DNA from: a virus
DNA: 53,788 bases
Virus record (IMG/VR): IMGVR_UViG_3300027631_000027
Coordinates: 1 to 53,788 of that record
Direction: 5' to 3' (one strand)
The translations under genes were made by a program, and so were the position numbers. Under the pieces are notes generated by a model. That model saw only the letters and a list, made by a program, of their open reading frames with translations, was not told the origin of the DNA and ran no database searches. This document shows positions 26,914 to 53,042 of the stretch, piece after piece; position 1 is the first letter of the stretch, and the number at the start of each line of letters is the position of its first letter.

Positions 26914-28899
26914 CTATTGACGAGCGAATCCAACAATATCGGTTTCTGGGTGACGTATTTCAAATATACATGGGTCAAGTGATGGATATACAATATCATC
27001 TACAGTTGCTTCTTCGATAGGATATCGATATTCAAAATAATCACGACCATCTTGGAATCTATACTTATTTGTTATAATTACATCGGAAATTGTTTGCACA
27101 CCTTCCACCGACCCAATTGTTAATCGTAAATCATTCATGATAATTGGTTGATTAATTTGCCACTTTGCAATATCAAAGAAATCTTTAATTGCATCAATAC
27201 ACCGTGCAACAACATCATTCATATTATAATTACGGTACACCACAATATGAAATTGAACACCGACATTCACAACAAACGCATCTAAAATATTTACGTCATC
27301 AGTAAGTACTCTATATTGTTCTAAATATTTAGCCAAGTTCTTTTTTACTAATGTATTCAATGTAGCTAAATTTTTATTTTCGTCATACCCCAACACATAT
27401 AAATTAATTGCGTTGGGAGCAACGGGGTCCACTACATATGACCGGTCGTTATATGGATTTTGATCGTTATTTAACGTCAATGAACCAGAATCTTGTCGTG
27501 CAATTGCGTTAATTTGTTCATCACGAACTACAAATACCTTTGATATTTGTCCAAACTGTGCTGGCATGGCCAGACTACGTACTAAATAATCCTTATCGGT
27601 AACAACTCGATTTTGTGCATTAAAAAATGCTAAGGCATTTTGCCGTATTTCCTCTACCGTTTCTGTGCTTCCCCCACCACGTGCAGGTTCTTCATTAAGA
27701 ATAGCTACACTAGATACTACTTGATTATATAATCCTTGTTCTGCGGAGGTATAATTTGCTGGATTGTTTGCAATATTAACATAGTCTACGCTAGTAATTG
27801 TATTTGACGCCACGTTTGATTCTATTCCACCGCCCACCATATATGTAACCGTTAGTGTAGTATTAGCAGGAGCCAAACCAAACGTATCCGTTGATATAAA
27901 ATCCGCAGGATCTAGTGATGAGTTAGTAATAACTTGATTATATTTTGAATTAGCTATTTGTGTGGAGTTCAATGTCAATAATTCATCACTAGTATCGTTT
28001 GTTCCTGACCCAAACCATAATTCTAATTTCATATCAGAGTTAATTCTTGTGGCAAATCTTCTTGGTTTTTTACGAAATATTGCAAGTTTTGCGGGAGACA
28101 ATGACCCAGATTGCATGACGGTGGATGAAAAAAATCCACCGGTGCCACGAGATTCTATATTACGTTCTTCTATGATTAAATCTTGTCCCAAATAATCTAC
28201 TTCATACCAAGGATTTCCATCGGAATCTGTCACATTAGTGATTGAGATAACGTTTGAATCTACAATTTCTATCTTAGAAAATTTTTGTGCCGAACCAAAC
28301 GAAAACGTTGCCGTTTTTATATCTGCCGATACGAGTTTTATTTTCTTAGACACAACATACATGGTTGGTGCATTTGACGCATCACGTGCCAATACGCGAA
28401 TGGTTCTATTTAATCCATCGGCAAAATTTACATCCTCAGTAGAACGAAAATTTTGTGTTGGTAACGTACTTGTAGAAAATTTAGAATTTGCTAATATTTT
28501 TAAGAAAAATTTCTGGTCAGGTTCGTAATTAAACGTAGATCCCAATGCGGGAACCATCTGATATATGTCTGCTTCTACTGTGGCTGCTGCAGTAAGTTTA
28601 GGTTTATAGCCCAATGCCTGTGATATACTTACAACATTATTTCTTTCCTTTGCAAACAACAATAAATTTTCTTTGAACTGGTTATCAATATAAAATGACA
28701 TAACATCACCCACATATGCTGCCATTTCCATGAACATCATACCAGGTGACGCTTCATTAAAATCACTATACGTATCTGGATAATATGATTTAGCAAACTC
28801 AATCAAATTTTGCCGATATTCGGAAAAATTCTTTGACAGATAATTAACATCTTTGAAATTTGGATTGAATTTTTTTGTAATTGATTGGTTCACTGCCAT
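26914..28899 (-). CDS. Baseplate wedge protein, T4 gp6-like (baseplate J family), 661 aa
   Basis: The N-terminus NFSEYRQNLIEFAKSYYPDT followed by NEASPGMMFMEMAAYVGDVM is the signature of gp6-like wedge proteins. The central part has the J-like domain (TETVEEIRQNALAFFNAQNR, VVTDKDYLVRSLAMP). The C-terminal part (IDAIKDFFDIAKWQINQPII, GRDYFEYRYPIEE) matches the dimerisation region. The length of 661 is close to T4 gp6. In T4-like baseplates, gp6 dimers form the ring that joins the wedges. The gene sits just downstream of the gp25-like gene, the usual neighbour in contractile systems. Confidence 0.9.
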   Translation of the reverse strand: MAVNQSITKKFNPNFKDVNYLSKNFSEYRQNLIEFAKSYYPDTYSDFNEASPGMMFMEMAAYVGDVMSFYIDNQFKENLLLFAKERNNVVSISQALGYKPKLTAAATVEADIYQMVPALGSTFNYEPDQKFFLKILANSKFSTSTLPTQNFRSTEDVNFADGLNRTIRVLARDASNAPTMYVVSKKIKLVSADIKTATFSFGSAQKFSKIEIVDSNVISITNVTDSDGNPWYEVDYLGQDLIIEERNIESRGTGGFFSSTVMQSGSLSPAKLAIFRKKPRRFATRINSDMKLELWFGSGTNDTSDELLTLNSTQIANSKYNQVITNSSLDPADFISTDTFGLAPANTTLTVTYMVGGGIESNVASNTITSVDYVNIANNPANYTSAEQGLYNQVVSSVAILNEEPARGGGSTETVEEIRQNALAFFNAQNRVVTDKDYLVRSLAMPAQFGQISKVFVVRDEQINAIARQDSGSLTLNNDQNPYNDRSYVVDPVAPNAINLYVLGYDENKNLATLNTLVKKNLAKYLEQYRVLTDDVNILDAFVVNVGVQFHIVVYRNYNMNDVVARCIDAIKDFFDIAKWQINQPIIMNDLRLTIGSVEGVQTISDVIITNKYRFQDGRDYFEYRYPIEEATVDDIVYPSLDPCIFEIRHPETDIVGFARQ

Positions 28900-39595: not shown

Positions 39596-39630
39596 AGTAT
39601 CTCCAAACATTATTAACACTAACCCTTCAG

Positions 39631-39975
39631 TGGACCCGGCGGGAGTCGAACCCGCGTCCGAGATTGCTTACTATTAAGTTTTTATGTACGTAGTCATTTT
39701 ATTGTACTACACCGCGTTTAAACAAATGACGAACCCACGCAGCTTTGAGTTGAAGAATTCTTTACCGAATATCAACTCATTCTTCGGTAATATATCATAT
39801 GCGATTACAAATTACCTTATATGAATCAGTAACTTGTCAAGCAGCGGATCTAAAAGATCAGGCTGCTAAGGCTAAGTTTTGGTTGCCGTTTGAAATTGTT
39901 GGTCTGTTTTACCAGTTTTACCAAGCTGGGTACAAAGCTTAATCATCCACACCCCGTCGAAACCAGTGCGGGCCC
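39631..39975 (-). ncRNA. ssrA: Phage-encoded tmRNA (ssrA), tag GNQNLALAA
   Basis: The 5' end is GGGCCCGCACTGGTTTCGAC followed by GGGG, matching the conserved tmRNA start. The 3' end is a T-arm (GCGGG-TTCGACT-CCCGC) and CGGGTCC pairing with the 5' GGGCCCG, then discriminator A (CCA not encoded). The tag frame at 39858-39887 reads GGC AAC CAA AAC TTA GCC TTA GCA GCC TGA, giving GNQNLALAA, which ends in the LAA degron seen in bacterial tags. Interleaved stems TTACCGAA/TTCGGTAA and GAGTTGA/TCAACTC, plus TCATAT/ATATGA with GTTAC/GTAAT, form H-type pseudoknots. It rescues stalled ribosomes with SmpB; no smpB is seen here, so host SmpB is presumably used. Confidence 0.95.
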
Positions 39976-43819: not shown

Positions 43820-43848
43820 TTGACATTTCTGGTTCAATGTATTATACT
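43820..43848 (+). promoter_or_regulatory. Rightward promoter of the divergent pair
   Basis: TTGACA (43820-43825), 17-nt spacer, TATACT (43843-43848). It drives the plus-strand accessory arm. It is nearly identical, including much of the spacer, to the uvdE promoter at 35660-35688. Confidence 0.82.
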
Positions 43849-44592: not shown

Positions 44593-45138
44593 ATGATACC
44601 ATTAAAAGAAGCAGTAGCAACCAAACATCAAGAGGCAGAACAGCATGTAGTTAATAGACATTTGATGAGCGGACACGTTATGGAACACGAATATCACACA
44701 TATTTGTGGCAGCAATTTCTTGTGTTTGATGCGATTGAAAGAGTTCCACTTCCGCACGCATCATTGAATAGATTGCCAGCAATTCTATTGGACATGCGTG
44801 AATTACCCACGCATGTTCGCCGCACCAGTGGGGAACTTGATGTGCCGATAATGACCAACCATGCCATTGAATATAACGAATATCTTTCAACTCTTACACA
44901 AGAAGAATTGCTGCCGCATATATATCTTAACTATTTGGCACTAATATTTGGTGGTCAAATGATGAAAGATAAAGTTCCTGGTAGCGGTAAGATGTACGAG
45001 TTTGATAATATGAAGGACATAATTATGTCTATTCGGTCTATTCAACAAGACGAATGGGCAGATGAAGTAAATAAAGGATTTACCTATATTATTGGAATAT
45101 TTAATGAACTACAAACTATATTTGGATTACTTAGCTGA
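44593..45138 (+). CDS. Heme oxygenase (HemO/HO-1 family), 181 aa
   Basis: The proximal heme ligand is H12 in ATKHQEAEQHVV, a clear match to the family's HxxAE pattern. The distal helix has the glycine pair G120-G121 in LNYLALIFGGQMMKDKVPGS, equivalent to the conserved LSGGQ region. Heme oxygenase opens heme to biliverdin, iron and CO using ferredoxin. Phage ho1 genes are known in cyanophages together with a bilin reductase. Here the next gene, overlapping it by 35 nt, is such a reductase. The length is slightly short but complete. Confidence 0.85.
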   Translation: MIPLKEAVATKHQEAEQHVVNRHLMSGHVMEHEYHTYLWQQFLVFDAIERVPLPHASLNRLPAILLDMRELPTHVRRTSGELDVPIMTNHAIEYNEYLSTLTQEELLPHIYLNYLALIFGGQMMKDKVPGSGKMYEFDNMKDIIMSIRSIQQDEWADEVNKGFTYIIGIFNELQTIFGLLS

Positions 45139-45796
45139 ACGATTTCAAACCATTATTACCGCACAAAATACCACGATAATTGATACAGAAGATTTTGGGT
45201 GGACAAATCATCGGTATAAGGCAGACTCGTTTCGTATGGCACACATTGAACGGTATACTGATGACAAGGTAAACGTATTACACGTTACCACATTTCCAAA
45301 TCAGTGGAGTCCAGAACCCATTTTTGGGTTTGATATAATCACCACACAGAATGCAGTAATTGGTGCCTATATGGATTTTAGTCCTGGATTGAAAACATAT
45401 AACTTTACGAACGGAATTACATTTGTTGACCGTAAACCTATTCCAGAATGGGCAACGGTATTTAGTGATCAATTCTTAACGCTAAAACCAAAAGATGATA
45501 ACGAGTTTATGCGGTTTTGTGATTGGGCAATACAAAAATATGAATGGTATTTGGGTATACTTGCAGAAAAGTATATGGTTGAGTGGGAAGAAGAACATGA
45601 AGTTATAAAAGTGCAAAATAACTATTGCGAAGTTCAAGCATCAAATCCACGTACATATAATGTATTGAAAGCTAAAATCGGGGAGCAACGAGCAAAATAC
45701 TTTATGGAAGAAATTTTGTTCCCGCAAATACCCACTGACCGTGTTGTCATCGACAGGGATGTAACAGAATTATATAAATTATTGGGTATTCTATGA
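45104..45796 (+). CDS. Ferredoxin-dependent bilin reductase (PcyA/PebS/PcyX-like), 230 aa
   Basis: The family core is visible: HIERYTDDKVNVLHVTTFPN, then PEPIFGFDIITTQNAVIGAY and MDFSPG. D91 corresponds to the catalytic Asp of PcyA/PebS. The C-terminus (RAKYFMEEILFPQIPTDR) matches the last helix. It would reduce biliverdin to a phycobilin (phycocyanobilin or phycoerythrobilin). I start at ATG 45104, not at the upstream TTG; the overlap with heme oxygenase implies coupling. Which product, PcyA-, PebS- or PcyX-type, cannot be decided by eye. PcyX genes from uncultured marine phages are the closest precedent I know. Confidence 0.82.
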   Translation: MNYKLYLDYLAERFQTIITAQNTTIIDTEDFGWTNHRYKADSFRMAHIERYTDDKVNVLHVTTFPNQWSPEPIFGFDIITTQNAVIGAYMDFSPGLKTYNFTNGITFVDRKPIPEWATVFSDQFLTLKPKDDNEFMRFCDWAIQKYEWYLGILAEKYMVEWEEEHEVIKVQNNYCEVQASNPRTYNVLKAKIGEQRAKYFMEEILFPQIPTDRVVIDRDVTELYKLLGIL

Positions 45797-46155
45797 GATT
45801 CTTAACAAGAAAACTGGTTCAACCTGGCGATTTAAATGCCGGTGGTACCTTATTTGGTGGCAGATGCTTGTCGTGGATTGACGAAGAAGCAGCCATTTTC
45901 GTGGGCGTTGAAACGAATCATCGTAGAGTAGTTACAAAAAGTATGTCTGCAATTAATTTCATTGCACCCGCATATCAAGGTGATGTTGTTGAGATTGGCG
46001 TTGCGCTAAAAGGTGTCGGTAAAACATCCGTTTCGGTAGAAGTGGTGGTACGAGACTTGACAACACAGAAGATTATCGTTAACATTGATGAAATGGTATT
46101 TGTGTGCGTTAATGAAGAAGGGCGGCCAGTAAGACATAGTTTATACACCGGATAA
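45793..46155 (+). CDS. Hotdog-fold acyl-CoA thioesterase (YciA-like), 120 aa
   Basis: The sequence LVQPGDLNAGGTLFGGRCLS followed by WIDEEAAIFV is a hallmark of the YciA/BFIT acyl-CoA hydrolase family. It is followed by the strands SMSAINFIAPAYQGDVVEIG and GKTSVSVEVVVRDL. Its ATG overlaps the bilin reductase stop as ATGA, so the two are coupled. Why a thioesterase rides in a heme/bilin operon is unclear: it might alter lipids or CoA pools, or act on an unknown thioester. The length is near the typical 130 residues. Confidence 0.85.
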   Translation: MRFLTRKLVQPGDLNAGGTLFGGRCLSWIDEEAAIFVGVETNHRRVVTKSMSAINFIAPAYQGDVVEIGVALKGVGKTSVSVEVVVRDLTTQKIIVNIDEMVFVCVNEEGRPVRHSLYTG

Positions 46156-46399: not shown

Positions 46400-46831
46400 A
46401 TGAAATTCATGTATTTGTTGTTAGCAATTCCGAACATTGCATTTGCACAAGTGGACACACGTATTATAGAAACGGAACAGTCCCGTGGTAATCCACCAAC
46501 GGAAAAAGTGGTACGACCAGAACCGCCGCGGCGAATGGAACCACCAGTACGACCAGAACCACCGAGAAATATTGATCGGCCACTTCCAGTGCCAATGAAT
46601 CAACACTGGATTTCCCAAAGTCCTTCGTGGGGCGATTGTTTAAACATGCCACCACAGTTCCGTTCAGTTTGTATGGATATAGGAATGTCACGTAATCGTT
46701 CTATGAATTATCGTCCAACAAAGCCCACACTCCGCCAACAGATTAAACGGGCTACCCCACAACAACGCCGTGCAATACAACAGGCCCGCAAAGAATTCCG
46801 ACAAAAAGTACAACGTATATTAAAAAAGTAG
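46400..46831 (+). CDS. Secreted proline/arginine-rich protein, 143 aa
   Basis: A signal peptide (MKFMYLLLAIPNIAFAQ, cleavage likely after AFA) is followed by a Pro/Arg/Glu-rich repeat (VRPEPPRRMEPPVRPEPPRN). A cysteine pair (WGDCLNMPPQFRSVCMD) comes next, then a very basic helical C-terminus (RQQIKRATPQQRRAIQQARK). GGAG lies 7 nt before the ATG. No lipobox, so it is not a classical Rz1-like spanin. A periplasmic protein with a basic nucleic-acid- or membrane-binding tail fits best. Confidence 0.62.
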   Translation: MKFMYLLLAIPNIAFAQVDTRIIETEQSRGNPPTEKVVRPEPPRRMEPPVRPEPPRNIDRPLPVPMNQHWISQSPSWGDCLNMPPQFRSVCMDIGMSRNRSMNYRPTKPTLRQQIKRATPQQRRAIQQARKEFRQKVQRILKK

Positions 46832-46845
46832 TATAAATAGTTACT

Positions 46846-46928
46846 GGACGAGTGGCTGAGCGGTTGAAGGCACGGGTCTGCAAAACCCTTGGAGAAATCC
46901 CACATCGGTTCAAATCCGATCTCGTCCT
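46846..46928 (+). tRNA. tRNA-Cys(GCA), class II shape
   Basis: Acceptor GGACGAG/CTCGTCC, discriminator U (the Cys identity base), anticodon loop CTGCAAA giving GCA, T-arm ATCGG-TTCAAAT-CCGAT. The variable region is about 14 nt with a small GGA-GAAA-TCC hairpin, longer than usual for tRNA-Cys. CCA is not encoded. A TATAAATA lies 5 nt upstream. Confidence 0.9.
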
Positions 46929-46945
46929 TATTACAGGAGATAGTT

Positions 46946-47332
46946 ATGAAAAATCAGATATTTGTATTTGGAAGTAATTTAGCAGGGCGGCATGCATGCC
47001 GCGGCGGCATGCATGCCGCCCTTACCGCATATAGAACCCATGGCGCTATTTACGGACAAGGATATGGAATGCAAGGTAACAGTTTTGCTATTCCAACGAA
47101 GGACGAAAATTTAAATACATTACCAGTGAATAAGATTGCAAAATATGTAGATAAATTTATTAATTATGCAGTATTAAACCCAGATTTAATGTTTCAAGTT
47201 ACAAGAATTGGTTGTGGGTTGGCTGGATATGAAGACAGTGATATTGCTCCACTATTTATAAACGCACCCAGTAATTGTATTCTTCCTGTTGGGTGGCGAA
47301 ATTTTAAACCACACTCACTTGAGAAATTATGA
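46946..47332 (+). CDS. Conserved phage/bacterial protein with palindrome insert, 128 aa
   Basis: FVFGSNLAGRH at the start and GAIYGQGYGMQGNSFAIPTK, LMFQVTRIGCGLAGYEDSDI and PLFINAPSNCILPVGW follow the pattern of a conserved small protein (A1S_2505-like in my memory). Its fold seems Rossmann/macro-like, but I am not sure. Normally a short GAG-type loop follows GRH; here the loop reads ACRGGMHAA because a 37-nt perfect palindrome has been inserted in frame. AGGAGA precedes the ATG at 46946. It shares an ATGA overlap with the TonB-dependent receptor, so the two are coupled. Confidence 0.65.
   Translation: MKNQIFVFGSNLAGRHACRGGMHAALTAYRTHGAIYGQGYGMQGNSFAIPTKDENLNTLPVNKIAKYVDKFINYAVLNPDLMFQVTRIGCGLAGYEDSDIAPLFINAPSNCILPVGWRNFKPHSLEKL
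46985..47021 (+). repeat. Perfect 37-nt GC-rich palindrome inside a coding region
   Basis: Two copies of the 16-nt palindrome GCGGCATGCATGCCGC, separated by one G and flanked by GG and CC, give 18-bp inverted arms around a single central base. It is far more GC-rich than its surroundings and keeps the reading frame. It looks like an inserted palindromic element. Confidence 0.85.
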
Positions 47333-50037
47333 GATTTTTATTGCTTGCTGTATTGAGTTTGTTACTTCCGATTGAGATACTTCAATCACAGTCTGGACAA
47401 ATTGTTGGTAAGATTGTTGACGGTGCAACTGGACAAGGTATTGTAAACGCAGGAATTCAGGTTGTTGGTACCTCAACGGGAACATTATCGGGAATTGATG
47501 GAAGATACCGTGTCAAGGTACCCGCCGGAACAACTACACTACAAGTTCGCATTATTGGATATAGTCCAAAAACAGTTACGGGTATTATGGTTACCGAAAA
47601 CCAGACTATTGAACAAGACATTAGTATGGTATCGGCAAATATTCAATTGTCAGCAGTAAGTGTAACTGCCACAAAAGAAAAAGGAACTATCAATGATGCC
47701 CTAAATCAACAGAAAAATTCCACAAATGTAGTGAATGCAATTACCGCAGAACAAATTGCACGAAGTCCAGATGGTGATGCAGCACAAGCAGCACAACGAA
47801 TTAGCGGTGTTACCGTCCAAGATGGTAAGTATATCCAAGTTCGTGGATTAAGTGAACGGTATACAACGGCATCGTTGAATGGAGTTCGAATGGCAAGTCC
47901 AGAACCAGAGCGTAAAGTCGTTCCGCTTGACTTATTCCCATCAAGTTTACTACAAGATATCAGCACCAGCAAAACATTTACTCCAGACCAACCAGGAGAT
48001 TTTGCCGGTGCAAATGTAAACATACGAACAAAAGAATTTCCTGCTCGTAGACAAGTAAATTACTCCATGTCGATAGGGTCAAACAGTCGGGTATTCAACA
48101 GAGACTTACCATTTGCTCCCCGTGCGGGAGGAGAATTAGTTGGAGTCGTAAATTCTACTAGAGATATTCCATCGGAATTGAGTAATGTGAGTTTTTTAAG
48201 TAATACCACACAACAACAGTTCAATACTGCAATACGTCAACAACGAAATGTCTGGTATCCAACATATCGAAGTGGTGCGTTAAACGGGTCATTTGGTGCA
48301 TCTACTGGCGGAAATCAAATTTTTGGTAAACGAATTGGATATGTGCTGAGTGGGAATTATGGATATTCCGAAGAAACTCGTGCCGACGAACAATATGCGG
48401 TGGGAAATCAAGGAGCAAACAACACCGTCGTACCGCTCACGACTATCAATGGCGCAACGGGACGGGTTGGAGTTCAATGGGGAGGAATTGCAAATTTCTC
48501 AACCATGATTAAACAAAGTTCTAGGGTATCTTTGAACACCACCATTACTCGGAGTGCCGATAATGAAGCACGAGTGGACGGTGGATATGATGAAAATTTG
48601 GCAGATAGTATTAGTCGTACTACATTGCGGTATGTTGAACGCGGTGTCCTTGCTATTACTGGACAAGGTGAACATCAATTGTCATCTCGTAATAAGTCAT
48701 CGTGGTCGTTAACCTACGGAAATACAACCCGCAACGAACCAGACAGGTCTGATTTGGTATATGTTCGAAATCCGATGGGTCAGTATAATTTACTTGGGTC
48801 GTTGGACGGTGCCCGGCGATTGTATTTTAACTTACATGAAACCAATTATGTTGGTCAATTAGACCATACAATAAATGTAGGAGATATAGCATCACAGAAT
48901 GTAATTAAGACGGGTGTATATCTTAGAAAAACTAATCGATTGACCAATGCTCCTATTTATGCATTTATTAGTCGAGCAAATGAAAGTGTTACTACACAAT
49001 CTGCCGATGTAATTTTTGGTAACTCACAAACCTGTCTAACATGCAATCAAGTAAATATTCAACCGATTGGACAAGCAGGATCATATATCGCATCCGACGA
49101 AAATTATGCGGGATATGTAATGTCTGAGTGGAAGATGTCAGATAAAATTCGTATGATTGTAGGTTCACGGATTGAATCTGCTGATATCAAGGTTAGTACA
49201 TCTACACAAGGTGGGTTTACAGCAGATGCACATTTACAAAATGTAGATGTATTACCATCCTTGTTAGTGAATACTAAGTTGTCTGAAACACAAAATTTAC
49301 GATTTGCATTTTCACAAACCGTATCCCGTCCCGAATACCGAGAACTTGCACCAGTAACATTTAGAGATGTATTGGGTGGAGTAAGTGTAACGGGTAATAG
49401 TAAACTGCAACGTGCCCGTGTGAATAACATTGATGTGCGTTATGAAATTTTTCCTACTTCATATGAAATTTTTAGTATTGGAGTATTTTCTAAAAAATTC
49501 AATCGTCCAATTGAACGAGTAGAATCTGCAACGTCTGGAGCATATCAAGCACTATATCAAAATGCAATGTCGGCAACGAACTATGGTATTGAGCTGGAAG
49601 GTAGAAAACAATTATGGACAAGTCCTATTACTGTATTTAGTAATGTAACCGTCATGAAATCGTCGGTACAATTAGATACCACTCAGGGATTAACGGTTAC
49701 CGACACAAAACGGGCATTGGTTGGACAAGCACCATATGTATTAAATTCCGGAATTACCTATTCGTCATTGGATGGAAGAACGAACGCAACAATATTATAT
49801 AACGTTGTCGGGGACCGCATTTTTGCTGCGGGAGTATTGCCATTACCAAACATCATTGAAAAGTCTCGGAAAATGATTGATGTAACTATCAAAACTCCTA
49901 TTAAGCAGAACACATCAATTCGTGTAGATGTTAGAAATCTATTGGATTCACGATATACCTTTACACAAGGAACATTAGAACGTGAAGGATATAATGTGGG
50001 AAGAATGGTGTCGGCGGGAATTTCAATCAATAAATAA
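47329..50037 (+). CDS. TonB-dependent outer-membrane receptor, 902 aa
   Basis: After a signal peptide (MRFLLLAVLSLLLPIEILQS) come a CarboxypepD_reg-like domain (GQIVGKIVDGATGQGIVNAG to GIMV, about 24-90), a TonB-box-like LSAVSVTA (about 108-115) and a plug. The plug (about 125-235) carries VRGLSERYTTASLNGVRMAS and PGDFAGANVNIRT. A 22-strand-type barrel with extracellular loops runs to the end. The last residues SAGISINK lack the terminal aromatic usually needed for barrel insertion, an oddity. Such receptors import siderophores, heme or other large ligands with host TonB. A complete receptor in a phage genome is very unusual. It may import heme, or replace or mask a phage receptor. Confidence 0.88.
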   Translation: MRFLLLAVLSLLLPIEILQSQSGQIVGKIVDGATGQGIVNAGIQVVGTSTGTLSGIDGRYRVKVPAGTTTLQVRIIGYSPKTVTGIMVTENQTIEQDISMVSANIQLSAVSVTATKEKGTINDALNQQKNSTNVVNAITAEQIARSPDGDAAQAAQRISGVTVQDGKYIQVRGLSERYTTASLNGVRMASPEPERKVVPLDLFPSSLLQDISTSKTFTPDQPGDFAGANVNIRTKEFPARRQVNYSMSIGSNSRVFNRDLPFAPRAGGELVGVVNSTRDIPSELSNVSFLSNTTQQQFNTAIRQQRNVWYPTYRSGALNGSFGASTGGNQIFGKRIGYVLSGNYGYSEETRADEQYAVGNQGANNTVVPLTTINGATGRVGVQWGGIANFSTMIKQSSRVSLNTTITRSADNEARVDGGYDENLADSISRTTLRYVERGVLAITGQGEHQLSSRNKSSWSLTYGNTTRNEPDRSDLVYVRNPMGQYNLLGSLDGARRLYFNLHETNYVGQLDHTINVGDIASQNVIKTGVYLRKTNRLTNAPIYAFISRANESVTTQSADVIFGNSQTCLTCNQVNIQPIGQAGSYIASDENYAGYVMSEWKMSDKIRMIVGSRIESADIKVSTSTQGGFTADAHLQNVDVLPSLLVNTKLSETQNLRFAFSQTVSRPEYRELAPVTFRDVLGGVSVTGNSKLQRARVNNIDVRYEIFPTSYEIFSIGVFSKKFNRPIERVESATSGAYQALYQNAMSATNYGIELEGRKQLWTSPITVFSNVTVMKSSVQLDTTQGLTVTDTKRALVGQAPYVLNSGITYSSLDGRTNATILYNVVGDRIFAAGVLPLPNIIEKSRKMIDVTIKTPIKQNTSIRVDVRNLLDSRYTFTQGTLEREGYNVGRMVSAGISINK

Positions 50038-50084: not shown

Positions 50085-51152
50085 ATGTCACACTTTAAAA
50101 AACCTCGCGTATTATTTGTTCTTAAACTACGACATCAATCGGGCGGTGAATCTACCGTATTAAAGCATTCGGGGTTATTTAATTCGGCAACGTTTGTAAA
50201 AGATATGTTGTGTGAAAATGGATATGTGGCAGACTTAGTGCAAGTGGTGGACAATAATCAAATTGACGCACAGGTAAAAAAACACAATCCCGACATTGTT
50301 ATTATTGAAGCATTGTGGGTTGTACCGGAAAAATTTGATGTGTTACGGAAGTTATATCCAAAAGTAAAATGGATTGTACGACTACATAGTGAATTACCAT
50401 TTTTAGCCAATGAAGGTATTGCATTAGAATGGATTAATAAATATTTGCATATGAAGAATGTATATATTTCTGCAAATTCTGATTTTGCACAACGTGATTT
50501 GGAAAATTACTTCAGCGCATCCATGTACCCAGACTTATATCGCAAGATTATATTTTTACCGAATTATTATCCAGTAAAACAAGTAAAAATCTCATTACAA
50601 AAGGTTTGGAAAGCCGGTGGTACTATTAATGTAGGATGTTTTGGGGCAATTCGTCCGATGAAAAATCATTTAGTACAAGCCGCAGCGGCAGTAGAATTTG
50701 CAGAACAGCGTGGATTAATATGTAAATTTCACATTAATTCTGGTCGGGTTGAGGGTAAGGGGGATACGGTATTAAAAAACCTTAGAGCGTTTTTTCATGG
50801 ATTGGGTGGCCGCCATGTATTGGTTGAACATGGATGGCTGGATAGAACAGAATTCTTACAACTAGTTCGTCAAATGGATATTGGGTTGCAAGTATCATTG
50901 TCGGAAACCTTTAATATTGTCTCAGCAGATTTTGTAAATGAGGATATTCCTATTGTGACCTCCACTGAAGTAGATTGGATGCCTAAATTCTTCACATCGA
51001 AAGCAACTGATGCACATAAGATTGCTAACGTAATGTCCCGCACATTATTTTATAACCGATATTTTCGTTGGTTGGATTGGCCAAGACAATCATTAAAATC
51101 CTATGTTAATAGAACAGAACGATTGTGGGTTGACAAACTGAATAGACTCTAA
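50085..51152 (+). CDS. GT-B glycosyltransferase, 355 aa
   Basis: The N-terminal half is Rossmann-like (RVLFVLKLRHQSGGESTVLK, PDIVIIEALWVVPEKFDVLR). The C-terminal half begins NVGCFGAIRPMKNHLVQAAA and contains SETFNIVSADFVNEDIPIV, the donor-binding E-x7-E-like segment of GT4 enzymes. It would transfer a sugar from a nucleotide donor to a host glycan or virion acceptor. Next to the carbamoyltransferase it forms a likely glycan-modification pair. There is no membrane anchor. Confidence 0.8.
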   Translation: MSHFKKPRVLFVLKLRHQSGGESTVLKHSGLFNSATFVKDMLCENGYVADLVQVVDNNQIDAQVKKHNPDIVIIEALWVVPEKFDVLRKLYPKVKWIVRLHSELPFLANEGIALEWINKYLHMKNVYISANSDFAQRDLENYFSASMYPDLYRKIIFLPNYYPVKQVKISLQKVWKAGGTINVGCFGAIRPMKNHLVQAAAAVEFAEQRGLICKFHINSGRVEGKGDTVLKNLRAFFHGLGGRHVLVEHGWLDRTEFLQLVRQMDIGLQVSLSETFNIVSADFVNEDIPIVTSTEVDWMPKFFTSKATDAHKIANVMSRTLFYNRYFRWLDWPRQSLKSYVNRTERLWVDKLNRL

Positions 51153-51226: not shown

Positions 51227-52756
51227 ATGATGTTACCAAACATATCTGTGTATGGGTCACATAATGCTGGATTTGCGGTGGAACACAACAATAAAATTTT
51301 AGAAGTGGTAGAATTAGAAAGATTTTTAAATATTAAGAATCTTGGATATACTATGTGGGAAGTACCACGGTCGCAAAAATATGTTGTAAAATTAATATTA
51401 GATTATTTTAAACAAAAATATGGATTTGATAGATATGAAAATTGTCTACATCAAGCCGCCCATCCATTTTATCAAGACATACCTGCAAACAATTATATAG
51501 AGTCGAATCACCACGAATCTCATGCGGCAGGCTGTTTTTATCAATCAACATTTACAGAAGCAATTGTCGTTTCGTTTGACGGTGGTGCACCGGACGGGTA
51601 TTTCAATATCTATAAAGTTATACGGGGTCAATCACCGACGCTCATAAAAAAAATTGATTTAGATGTCGGTGGTTCATACATGGCGTTTGGACATTATCTA
51701 GCAGATATTAAGCAAGAACATAAAATGGAATTCATAACATATCCAGGAAAAATTCTCGGATTACAGTCATACGGAATTGCCAATCCCGATTGGTTGCCGC
51801 ATTTTATAAATTATTATTTGGAGGGGAAAAATTATAGTTCATTGCCAGAACTTGGTAGACGCATTGGAGTACCATTTAATCAACGATATACTGGTCAGTT
51901 AGCGTACGACATTGCAGCAACATCGCAGGCAGCATTTGAACAAGTAACCCATCAATTAATTGCCGAAAGTATAGAAGAAAATCCAACTCTTCCAATTTGT
52001 TTAACCGGTGGATGTGCATTAAATATTGTATTTAATACGAAGTTAAAAGAATATTACAATAGACCTGTATTTGTCGGTCCAAGTCCAAGTGACTGTGGAA
52101 TTGTTGTTGGAATGTTAGCTGGGTTAATAAAACCCACCGAACCAATTGATGTTACTTATGCGGGACAAGAAATATTAGACAGTCTTAGACTGCCGGAGTA
52201 CATAGAACAATATAACGCTACATATAAAACTGCGGAAGAATTGTCCACGGAATTGGTGTCTGGAAAAATAGTAGGACTAGTACAAGGAAGAGCAGAACAT
52301 GGACCCAGAGCATTAGGAAATCGTAGTATTATCTGTAATCCATTGATAGCAGATATGAAAGATAAATTGAATCATAAGGTAAAACACCGAGAATGGTATC
52401 GACCGTTTGCCCCAGTAGTACGGTTGGAGGATGTATCTGAATACTTTGAATGGGAAGGAGATTCTAGGTGGATGAGTTTTTGTATAAAAGTAAAGTCTGA
52501 ATATCTGAATGTGATGCCGGCAATTGTACATGTAGACAACACTGCCAGAGTACAGACGGTTACTAGGGAAGAAAATCAATTTTTATATGATTTACTGACC
52601 GAATTCAAAAAAACTACCGGAATCGGTGTTTTATTAAATACATCATTTAACATGGATGGCCGGCCAATTTTATCAACATATGCCGACGCCCTGCATGTAC
52701 TAAATAATACAGAATTAGACGCCGTACATTTAAACGGATTTTATTTTACCAAATAA
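51227..52756 (+). CDS. Carbamoyltransferase (NodU/CmcH family), 509 aa
   Basis: The metal site NHHESHAAGCFYQS (H95, H96, H99) and FDGGAPDGYFNIY belong to the N-terminal Kae1-like domain. CLTGGCALNIVFNTKL, EHGPRALGNRSIICNPLIAD, WYRPFAPVV and TSFNMDGRPILS are hallmark motifs of the catalytic region. It transfers a carbamoyl group from carbamoyl phosphate to a sugar hydroxyl. Phage copies are known in several marine genomes. Beside a GT-B enzyme it may carbamoylate surface polysaccharide or a virion sugar. The ATG pair at 51227/51230 follows GAGG. Confidence 0.9.
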   Translation: MMLPNISVYGSHNAGFAVEHNNKILEVVELERFLNIKNLGYTMWEVPRSQKYVVKLILDYFKQKYGFDRYENCLHQAAHPFYQDIPANNYIESNHHESHAAGCFYQSTFTEAIVVSFDGGAPDGYFNIYKVIRGQSPTLIKKIDLDVGGSYMAFGHYLADIKQEHKMEFITYPGKILGLQSYGIANPDWLPHFINYYLEGKNYSSLPELGRRIGVPFNQRYTGQLAYDIAATSQAAFEQVTHQLIAESIEENPTLPICLTGGCALNIVFNTKLKEYYNRPVFVGPSPSDCGIVVGMLAGLIKPTEPIDVTYAGQEILDSLRLPEYIEQYNATYKTAEELSTELVSGKIVGLVQGRAEHGPRALGNRSIICNPLIADMKDKLNHKVKHREWYRPFAPVVRLEDVSEYFEWEGDSRWMSFCIKVKSEYLNVMPAIVHVDNTARVQTVTREENQFLYDLLTEFKKTTGIGVLLNTSFNMDGRPILSTYADALHVLNNTELDAVHLNGFYFTK

Positions 52757-52781: not shown

Positions 52782-53042
52782 ATGTTACCAACTATGAATG
52801 CAAATGACAAACTGAAACTGATGGGTGCAATTAAGGATATGAGTACGTCCCTTACTCGTATGGACGCAGAACGTGACCTTCAAAAGAATATTAAAAACGA
52901 TATTTGTAAGGAATTGGACTTGAATAAGAAGGTATTCACGAAACTTGCCAAGACCTATCACAAGCAGAATTTTAGTGAAGAAGTGGCATTGCACGAAGAA
53001 TATGAGACTTTATACGAAAATGTCACGAAATCGTCGGTGTAA
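52782..53042 (+). CDS. Small helical protein, possibly DsbA-like DNA binder, 86 aa
   Basis: The pattern LTRMDAERDLQKNIKNDICK followed by ELDLNKKVFTKLAKTYHKQN and EEVALHEEYETLYENV resembles the small helical proteins of T4-like phages (dsbA or uvsW.1 type), thought to bind DNA in late transcription or replication. The match is from memory and moderate. GAGG precedes the ATG by 5 nt. The coiled and charged sequence has no cysteine pair or membrane segment. Confidence 0.6.
   Translation: MLPTMNANDKLKLMGAIKDMSTSLTRMDAERDLQKNIKNDICKELDLNKKVFTKLAKTYHKQNFSEEVALHEEYETLYENVTKSSV

What the first reader, a model, noticed from the sequence alone, without database searches (positions are those of the whole stretch)
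47329..50037. A phage genome carrying a full-length TonB-dependent outer-membrane receptor
A 902-residue receptor with signal peptide, CarboxypepD-like domain, TonB box, plug and barrel lies in a clear phage context and is ATGA-coupled to the preceding gene. Phages normally use such receptors to enter cells; encoding one could allow nutrient import during infection, exclude rival phages by swapping the receptor, or supply a decoy. The C-terminal SINK lacks the usual terminal aromatic, so insertion or function may be altered.
Basis: partly seen in the sequence, partly recalled or inferred. Interest (0 to 1): 0.85.

Follow-up and report, generated by a model that had tools for sequence, protein, structure and literature searches.

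The report
Phage-borne outer-membrane phosphate-uptake receptor
A T4-like virus carries a complete outer-membrane import gate that its probable hosts (Gemmatimonadota bacteria) keep beside their phosphate-starvation genes, which suggests that some phages make infected cells pull in phosphorus through the outer membrane, a step missing from the catalogues of phage phosphorus genes read here.

Summary
In detail: window 47329-50037 encodes an intact 902-aa TonB-dependent receptor (TBDT) in a T4-like phage fragment, predicted with good confidence to have the plug-barrel fold. It is not an assembly chimera: eleven other IMG/VR contigs carry the gene at 67-71% identity in phage neighbourhoods, one a 146-kb relative collinear with window 6-43 kb.

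It was captured from Gemmatimonadota. Its nearest cellular relatives (65-71%) sit in a conserved phosphate locus: PhoB/PhoR-like regulators, TBDT, ElpS-like surface lipoprotein, PstS/PstC or Ppx. The phage copies form one clade under strong purifying selection. Another phage of the same lineage captured the gene separately from a second Gemmatimonadota clade. Other phages carry a Bacteroidota-type TBDT-lipoprotein pair; at least 222 viral contigs encode the lipoprotein.

Best reading: an outer-membrane phosphorus-import auxiliary gene, complementing phage pstS and phoA. It may work with the host's lipoprotein, and it lacks the host's Pho-box-like promoter. The substrate is inferred from orthology and synteny, not shown. 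Heme uptake (a heme oxygenase-bilin reductase pair lies 2 kb upstream), B12 uptake and receptor decoy are less supported.

The parts
47329..50037 (+). TonB-dependent receptor, 902 aa: signal peptide about 1-20, CarboxypepD-like domain 25-112, TonB-box-like LSAVSVTA about 107-114, plug about 120-240, barrel 241-902
   Evidence: orthologues; tree
46946..47332 (+). A1S_2505-family phage non-structural protein, overlapping the receptor start by ATGA; TTG start at 46889 in the ORF list is probably wrong
   Evidence: NF049995 2.7e-42, phrog_2072, 436 phage records
46846..46928 (+). tRNA-Cys(gca)
46400..46831 (+). small Pro/Arg-rich protein with signal peptide, function unknown
   Evidence: sequence; no family match
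45793..46155 (+). YciA-like hotdog acyl-CoA thioesterase
   Evidence: PF03061 7e-14; YciA model 1.4e-11, below cut-off
45104..45796 (+). ferredoxin-dependent bilin reductase; Glu, His and Asp at the PcyA catalytic positions
   Evidence: PF05996 2e-23, phrog_7278
44593..45138 (+). heme-oxygenase-like protein with a non-canonical distal helix
   Evidence: PF01126 1.7e-10
43820..43848 (+). sigma-70-like promoter TTGACA-17-TATACT at the head of the plus-strand block; one of many consensus matches
   Evidence: total count equals shuffles
50085..51152 (+). glycosyltransferase-like protein, also near HO-FDBR tandems in other phages (44%)
51227..52756 (+). NodU/TobZ-type carbamoyltransferase
   Evidence: PF16861 2e-62, phrog_1601
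52782..53042 (+). DsbA-type late transcription regulator
   Evidence: PF11126 4e-13
26914..28899 (-). T4-type baseplate wedge protein, used as lineage marker
   Evidence: phrog_219

Best explanation
The gene is a captured Gemmatimonadota TBDT from the phosphate-starvation locus, kept by a T4-like phage lineage as an outer-membrane phosphorus-import auxiliary gene. During infection the phage makes the receptor from phage promoters. It would insert in the host outer membrane, be powered by host TonB-ExbBD, and import phosphate or a phosphorylated compound. The host's PstSCAB would then complete uptake, possibly with the host's own ElpS-like lipoprotein as surface partner. This would keep phosphorus flowing while host transcription is shut down. 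Shown: fold (predicted), intactness, purifying selection, origin from Gemmatimonadota, Pho-locus synteny of the donors, separate captures. Inferred: the substrate, expression during infection, Gemmatimonadota as host, and partnership with host proteins.
For: Nearest cellular relatives are Gemmatimonadaceae proteins at 65-71% over about 900 aa; Bacteroidota are near 28-30%. In Gemmatimonadota loci with enough flank the gene usually lies between PhoB-like and PhoR-like regulators and an ElpS-like lipoprotein followed by PstS/PstC or Ppx. Best-matching upstream stretches in 27 loci align as an 11-bp-period direct repeat resembling a Pho box. In the careful tree ten phage copies including the window form one clade (100/100) inside Gemmatimonadaceae, and a phage of the same lineage (L280) groups with a different Gemmatimonadota clade (100/99), a second capture. 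dN/dS is about 0.07 for the one unsaturated pair. Gene GC is 0.40 against 0.62-0.73 in close donors. The TBDT sits in several different positions in the lineage. Other phages carry a Bacteroidota-type TBDT next to the same lipoprotein: adjacent in 73 of the 80 best contigs, with a T4-type baseplate gene in 13 of 24 lipoprotein-bearing records checked. Literature: Caulobacter ElpS is induced by phosphate starvation and is encoded beside a TBDT (PMC2996285); a Flavobacterium TBDT with the same two Pfam domains, beside a lipoprotein, is strongly induced by Pi depletion (PMC8115612); phage pstS donors usually match the host genus, 24 of 30 (PMC10976474).
Against: No substrate has been measured for any member tested here. 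Homology to CC0171 and Fjoh_3857 rests on architecture and neighbourhood; their sequences were not at hand. The window and its clade lack the lipoprotein next to the TBDT, and none was found in the 146-kb relative. The phage copies lack the Pho-box-like repeat, so no phosphate regulation is visible. A heme oxygenase and bilin reductase lie in the same gene block.
Confidence: 0.68

Rival explanations
1. Heme or iron receptor: it imports heme for the phage heme oxygenase and bilin reductase encoded 2 kb upstream, releasing iron and making a bilin.
For: HO and FDBR genes in the same plus-strand block. Top Foldseek hit is the heme receptor PhuR.
Against: Donor orthologues lie in Pho loci, not heme loci. 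No FRAP or NPDL-type motif and only four His residues. The other phages with the window-type TBDT show no bilin reductase match, and twelve close HO-FDBR records lack the window-type TBDT, though most are fragments. Fold ranking is tied among many substrates.
Confidence: 0.1
2. Superinfection exclusion or receptor decoy: the phage receptor replaces or dilutes the host TBDT used by rival phages.
For: TBDTs such as FhuA are phage receptors, with solved phage and exclusion-protein complexes. Several positions in related genomes suggest mobile, selected cargo.
Against: Loops are as conserved as the barrel and the plug is most conserved (0.86) against host copies. Purifying selection. The same family was taken up repeatedly together with a lipoprotein by other phages.
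Confidence: 0.1
3. Cobalamin receptor serving a phage class II (B12-dependent) ribonucleotide reductase.
For: BtuB is the best VIA-align match (Z 30). The TBDT is next to a class II RNR-like gene in L277 and its relatives.
Against: The neighbour differs in other relatives. No cobalamin riboswitch at six donor loci or in the phages searched. Donor loci are Pho loci.
Confidence: 0.05
4. Chimeric contig or functionless passenger gene.
For: The 100%-identical contig G001 ends before the gene, and reads were not available.
Against: Eleven other contigs carry intact or end-truncated copies in phage neighbourhoods. Low dN/dS and GC near that of the phage.
Confidence: 0.03

Closest known systems
Caulobacter CC0171 TBDT with ElpS lipoprotein (PMC2996285)
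   Same: TBDT encoded beside a surface lipoprotein linked to phosphate starvation; co-occurring pair in many genomes
   Different: Cellular; CC0171 itself was reported as constitutively expressed; sequence homology not tested here
Flavobacterium low-Pi TBDT Fjoh_3857 with lipoprotein Fjoh_3856 (PMC8115612)
   Same: Plug plus CarbopepD_reg_2 domains, adjacent lipoprotein, strong induction under Pi depletion
   Different: Cellular, Bacteroidota; the window clade has no adjacent lipoprotein; sequence homology not tested here
Cyanophage pstS and phoA (PMC10976474)
   Same: Host-derived phosphorus-uptake genes in T4-like phages, donors usually matching the host, patchy distribution
   Different: Periplasmic protein or enzyme, not an outer-membrane gate; cyanophage pstS is reported to be under host PhoBR, whereas no Pho-box-like repeat is seen here
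SusC-like TBDT of megaphages Mar_Mega_1 and LR745206 (PMC9723777)
   Same: Phage-encoded full-length TBDT. The only clear viral fold match is an uncultured marine phage SusC, TM 0.78/0.87. LR745206's copy also has the ElpS-like lipoprotein beside it
   Different: Proposed there for carbohydrate uptake; LR745206's copy is only about 26% identical; different phage kind and donor
Phage phosphorus-gene catalogue (PMC10987575)
   Same: 17 kinds of phage phosphorus-acquisition genes
   Different: Lists no TBDT (TonB does not occur in the text)

Membership tests
TonB-dependent receptor | Plug domain within a 22-strand barrel | tested here: met
   Plug by Pfam; AlphaFold2 pLDDT 86; BtuB Z 30, FecA Z 29
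TonB-dependent receptor | Signal peptide and TonB box | tested here: inconclusive
   Seen in sequence (N-terminal hydrophobic stretch; LSAVSVTA before the plug); no predictor run
Pho-locus TBDT of Gemmatimonadota | Orthology to receptors encoded in the phosphate locus | tested here: met
Pho-locus TBDT of Gemmatimonadota | Adjacent ElpS-like lipoprotein | tested here: not met
   Absent beside the phage gene and in relatives searched
Pho-locus TBDT of Gemmatimonadota | Pho-box-like upstream repeat | tested here: not met
   Window scores are near the shuffle level and not upstream of the gene
Phage phosphorus-acquisition auxiliary gene | Host-derived, intact, under purifying selection, in a phage genome | tested here: met
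Phage phosphorus-acquisition auxiliary gene | Demonstrated role in phosphorus uptake during infection | not testable with these tools
   Needs an experiment
Heme TBDT (HasR/ShuA type) | FRAP/NPDL motifs and heme-ligand His | tested here: not met
   Motifs absent, four His in all

The most novel reading that the evidence does not exclude
Outer-membrane phosphorus import by TonB-dependent receptors is a widespread, unrecognised auxiliary function of T4-like phages. It was captured separately from Gemmatimonadota (at least twice) and Bacteroidota, in receptor-only and receptor-plus-lipoprotein forms, and the window lineage is a group of Gemmatimonadota phages.
Probability: 0.55. Interest if true: 0.75.

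Novelty: new variant of a known kind. Interest (0 to 1): 0.62.

Why it matters
Phage phosphorus genes described in the papers read act in the periplasm, inner membrane or cytoplasm. An outer-membrane receptor would show that phages also control the first barrier of the cell. The family is common (at least 222 viral contigs with the partner lipoprotein), yet among 50,697 phage records it was found only in a 635-kb metagenomic phage and short human-fecal fragments. It gives a testable handle on the unknown substrate of ElpS-linked TBDTs. It also points to a host for a T4-like lineage: the paper search for phages of Gemmatimonadota returned nothing.

Tried and rejected
Bacteroidota as donor: suggested by the CarboxypepD domain and by Flavobacterium phages as relatives, rejected by the 28-30% identity. 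The window and G036 (L247) as unrelated phages sharing only the TBDT: dropped when G197 linked the two genome parts. Canonical E. coli Pho box: not found upstream of the donors or the phage gene. Single-sequence IMG/VR scans with the TBDT and with the FDBR found nothing; alignment queries worked. Promoter counts equal shuffles, so no promoter claim is firm. Substrate from fold ranking: Z values are tied among B12, heme and siderophore receptors. The conserved basic residues were not used, since acidic residues are also conserved. Bilin reductase in Gemmatimonadota: 0 of 150 genomes, so the HO-FDBR pair probably did not come from there. Absence of a Pho box is not proof of constitutive expression, as box prediction in phages is unreliable (PMC10976474).

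Full report
What is there. The ORF at 47329-50037 is intact and 902 aa long. Pfam finds a CarboxypepD-like domain and a plug. AlphaFold2 with a 47-sequence alignment gives pLDDT 86.2 and pTM 0.78, and the nearest solved folds are TBDTs, BtuB at Z 30. Among predicted viral proteins only one clear match exists, a SusC-named protein of an uncultured marine phage. The start overlaps the stop of an A1S_2505-family phage gene, and a tRNA-Cys precedes that gene.

Phage context. The window is a 53.8-kb linear IMG/VR record. Its minus strand holds T4-type structural and replication genes. The first 36.8 kb are 100% identical to a second contig that ends before the receptor. G197, a 146-kb record, is collinear with window 6-43 kb and also carries the TBDT, at another position, among genes matching the replication module of G036. 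So the window belongs to a T4-like lineage in which the receptor recurs. The window's own plus-strand auxiliary block, HO and FDBR included, has no counterpart in G197, whose contig ends there.

Independent copies. Besides the window, eleven contigs encode a window-type TBDT at 67-71% identity (some truncated by contig ends) and one encodes a 42% relative. Positions differ: before a dCMP deaminase in G036, near PhoH and gp32 in L249, next to a class II RNR-like gene in L277. The gene is therefore mobile within the lineage. This rules out chimerism as a general explanation, though reads for this contig were not available.

Origin. A scan of 84,980 genomes returned Gemmatimonadota at 65-71% over the full length, others far lower. 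The careful tree places ten phage copies in one clade (100/100) next to Gemmatimonadaceae, and the phage copy L280 with another Gemmatimonadota clade (100/99): two captures. Phage TBDTs with a lipoprotein (L253-L255) group among Bacteroidota, and LR745206 is separate again. dN/dS is near 0.07 for the one pair with usable dS; other pairs are saturated. GC of the window gene is 0.40, that of the close donors 0.62-0.73.

Function. In donor genomes the gene lies with PhoB-like and PhoR-like genes upstream and an ElpS-like lipoprotein downstream, followed by PstS/PstC or Ppx. The best-matching upstream stretch of 27 loci lines up as a repeat of 11-bp period. These were chosen as best matches to one consensus, so the number overstates the strength. 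Published work gives the pairing of a TBDT with such lipoproteins a phosphate-starvation link in Caulobacter (PMC2996285) and Flavobacterium (PMC8115612), but the proteins of those papers were not compared by sequence here. The lipoprotein occurs in at least 222 viral contigs, next to a TBDT in 73 of the best 80. No isolate in the phage collection carries either protein of that pair. From orthology, synteny and repeated capture I infer phosphorus import at about 0.68.

Differences from the donors. The window clade lacks the lipoprotein and the repeat. Since the receptor is 65-71% identical to the host copy and its loops are as conserved as its barrel, it may use the host lipoprotein. This is inference.

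Host. Two captures from Gemmatimonadota by one phage lineage, and the finding that phage pstS donors usually match hosts (PMC10976474), make Gemmatimonadota the likeliest host (about 0.7). Bilin reductase is absent from 150 Gemmatimonadota genomes, so that gene probably came by another route.

Novelty. Phage phosphorus genes and phage TBDTs are both known separately. A TBDT of the phosphate locus in phages was not found in the papers searched; the library holds only open-licence papers and the search was by words. I file it as a new variant of a known kind.

Noticed in passing
44593-45796 (+): Heme oxygenase-like gene overlapping a PcyA-like bilin reductase gene; the tandem recurs at 38-53% and 40-47% identity in twelve IMG/VR loci (L167-L178). 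Catalytic Glu, His and Asp of PcyA are kept, so phycocyanobilin is the predicted product.
   Followed up: partly
44593-45138 (+): The phage heme-oxygenase clade has NYLALxxGGQ where canonical enzymes have GDLSGGQ; the distal Asp is lost, which could change the reaction.
   Followed up: partly
L281-L360, L253-L255: ElpS-like lipoprotein in at least 222 IMG/VR contigs, beside a TBDT in 73 of the best 80; a widespread phage gene pair apparently undescribed.
   Followed up: partly
L002 (LR745206.1): The TBDT published as SusC in this megaphage has an ElpS-like lipoprotein beside it, so a phosphorus role fits better than carbohydrate uptake.
   Followed up: partly
39628-39975 (-): Phage tmRNA whose predicted tag ends LNAV rather than the usual ALAA; L249 has a permuted-type tmRNA beside the TBDT.
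   Followed up: no
L003, L004 (MT837092.1, MT835888.1): Records named Bacteriophage sp. from human feces whose genes look like Bacteroidota chromosome; probable contamination of the phage collection.
   Followed up: no
L231: A phage locus with a bilin reductase also encodes a PstS-like protein (38%).
   Followed up: no
46400-46831 (+): Small secreted Pro/Arg-rich protein of unknown function two genes upstream of the receptor.
   Followed up: no
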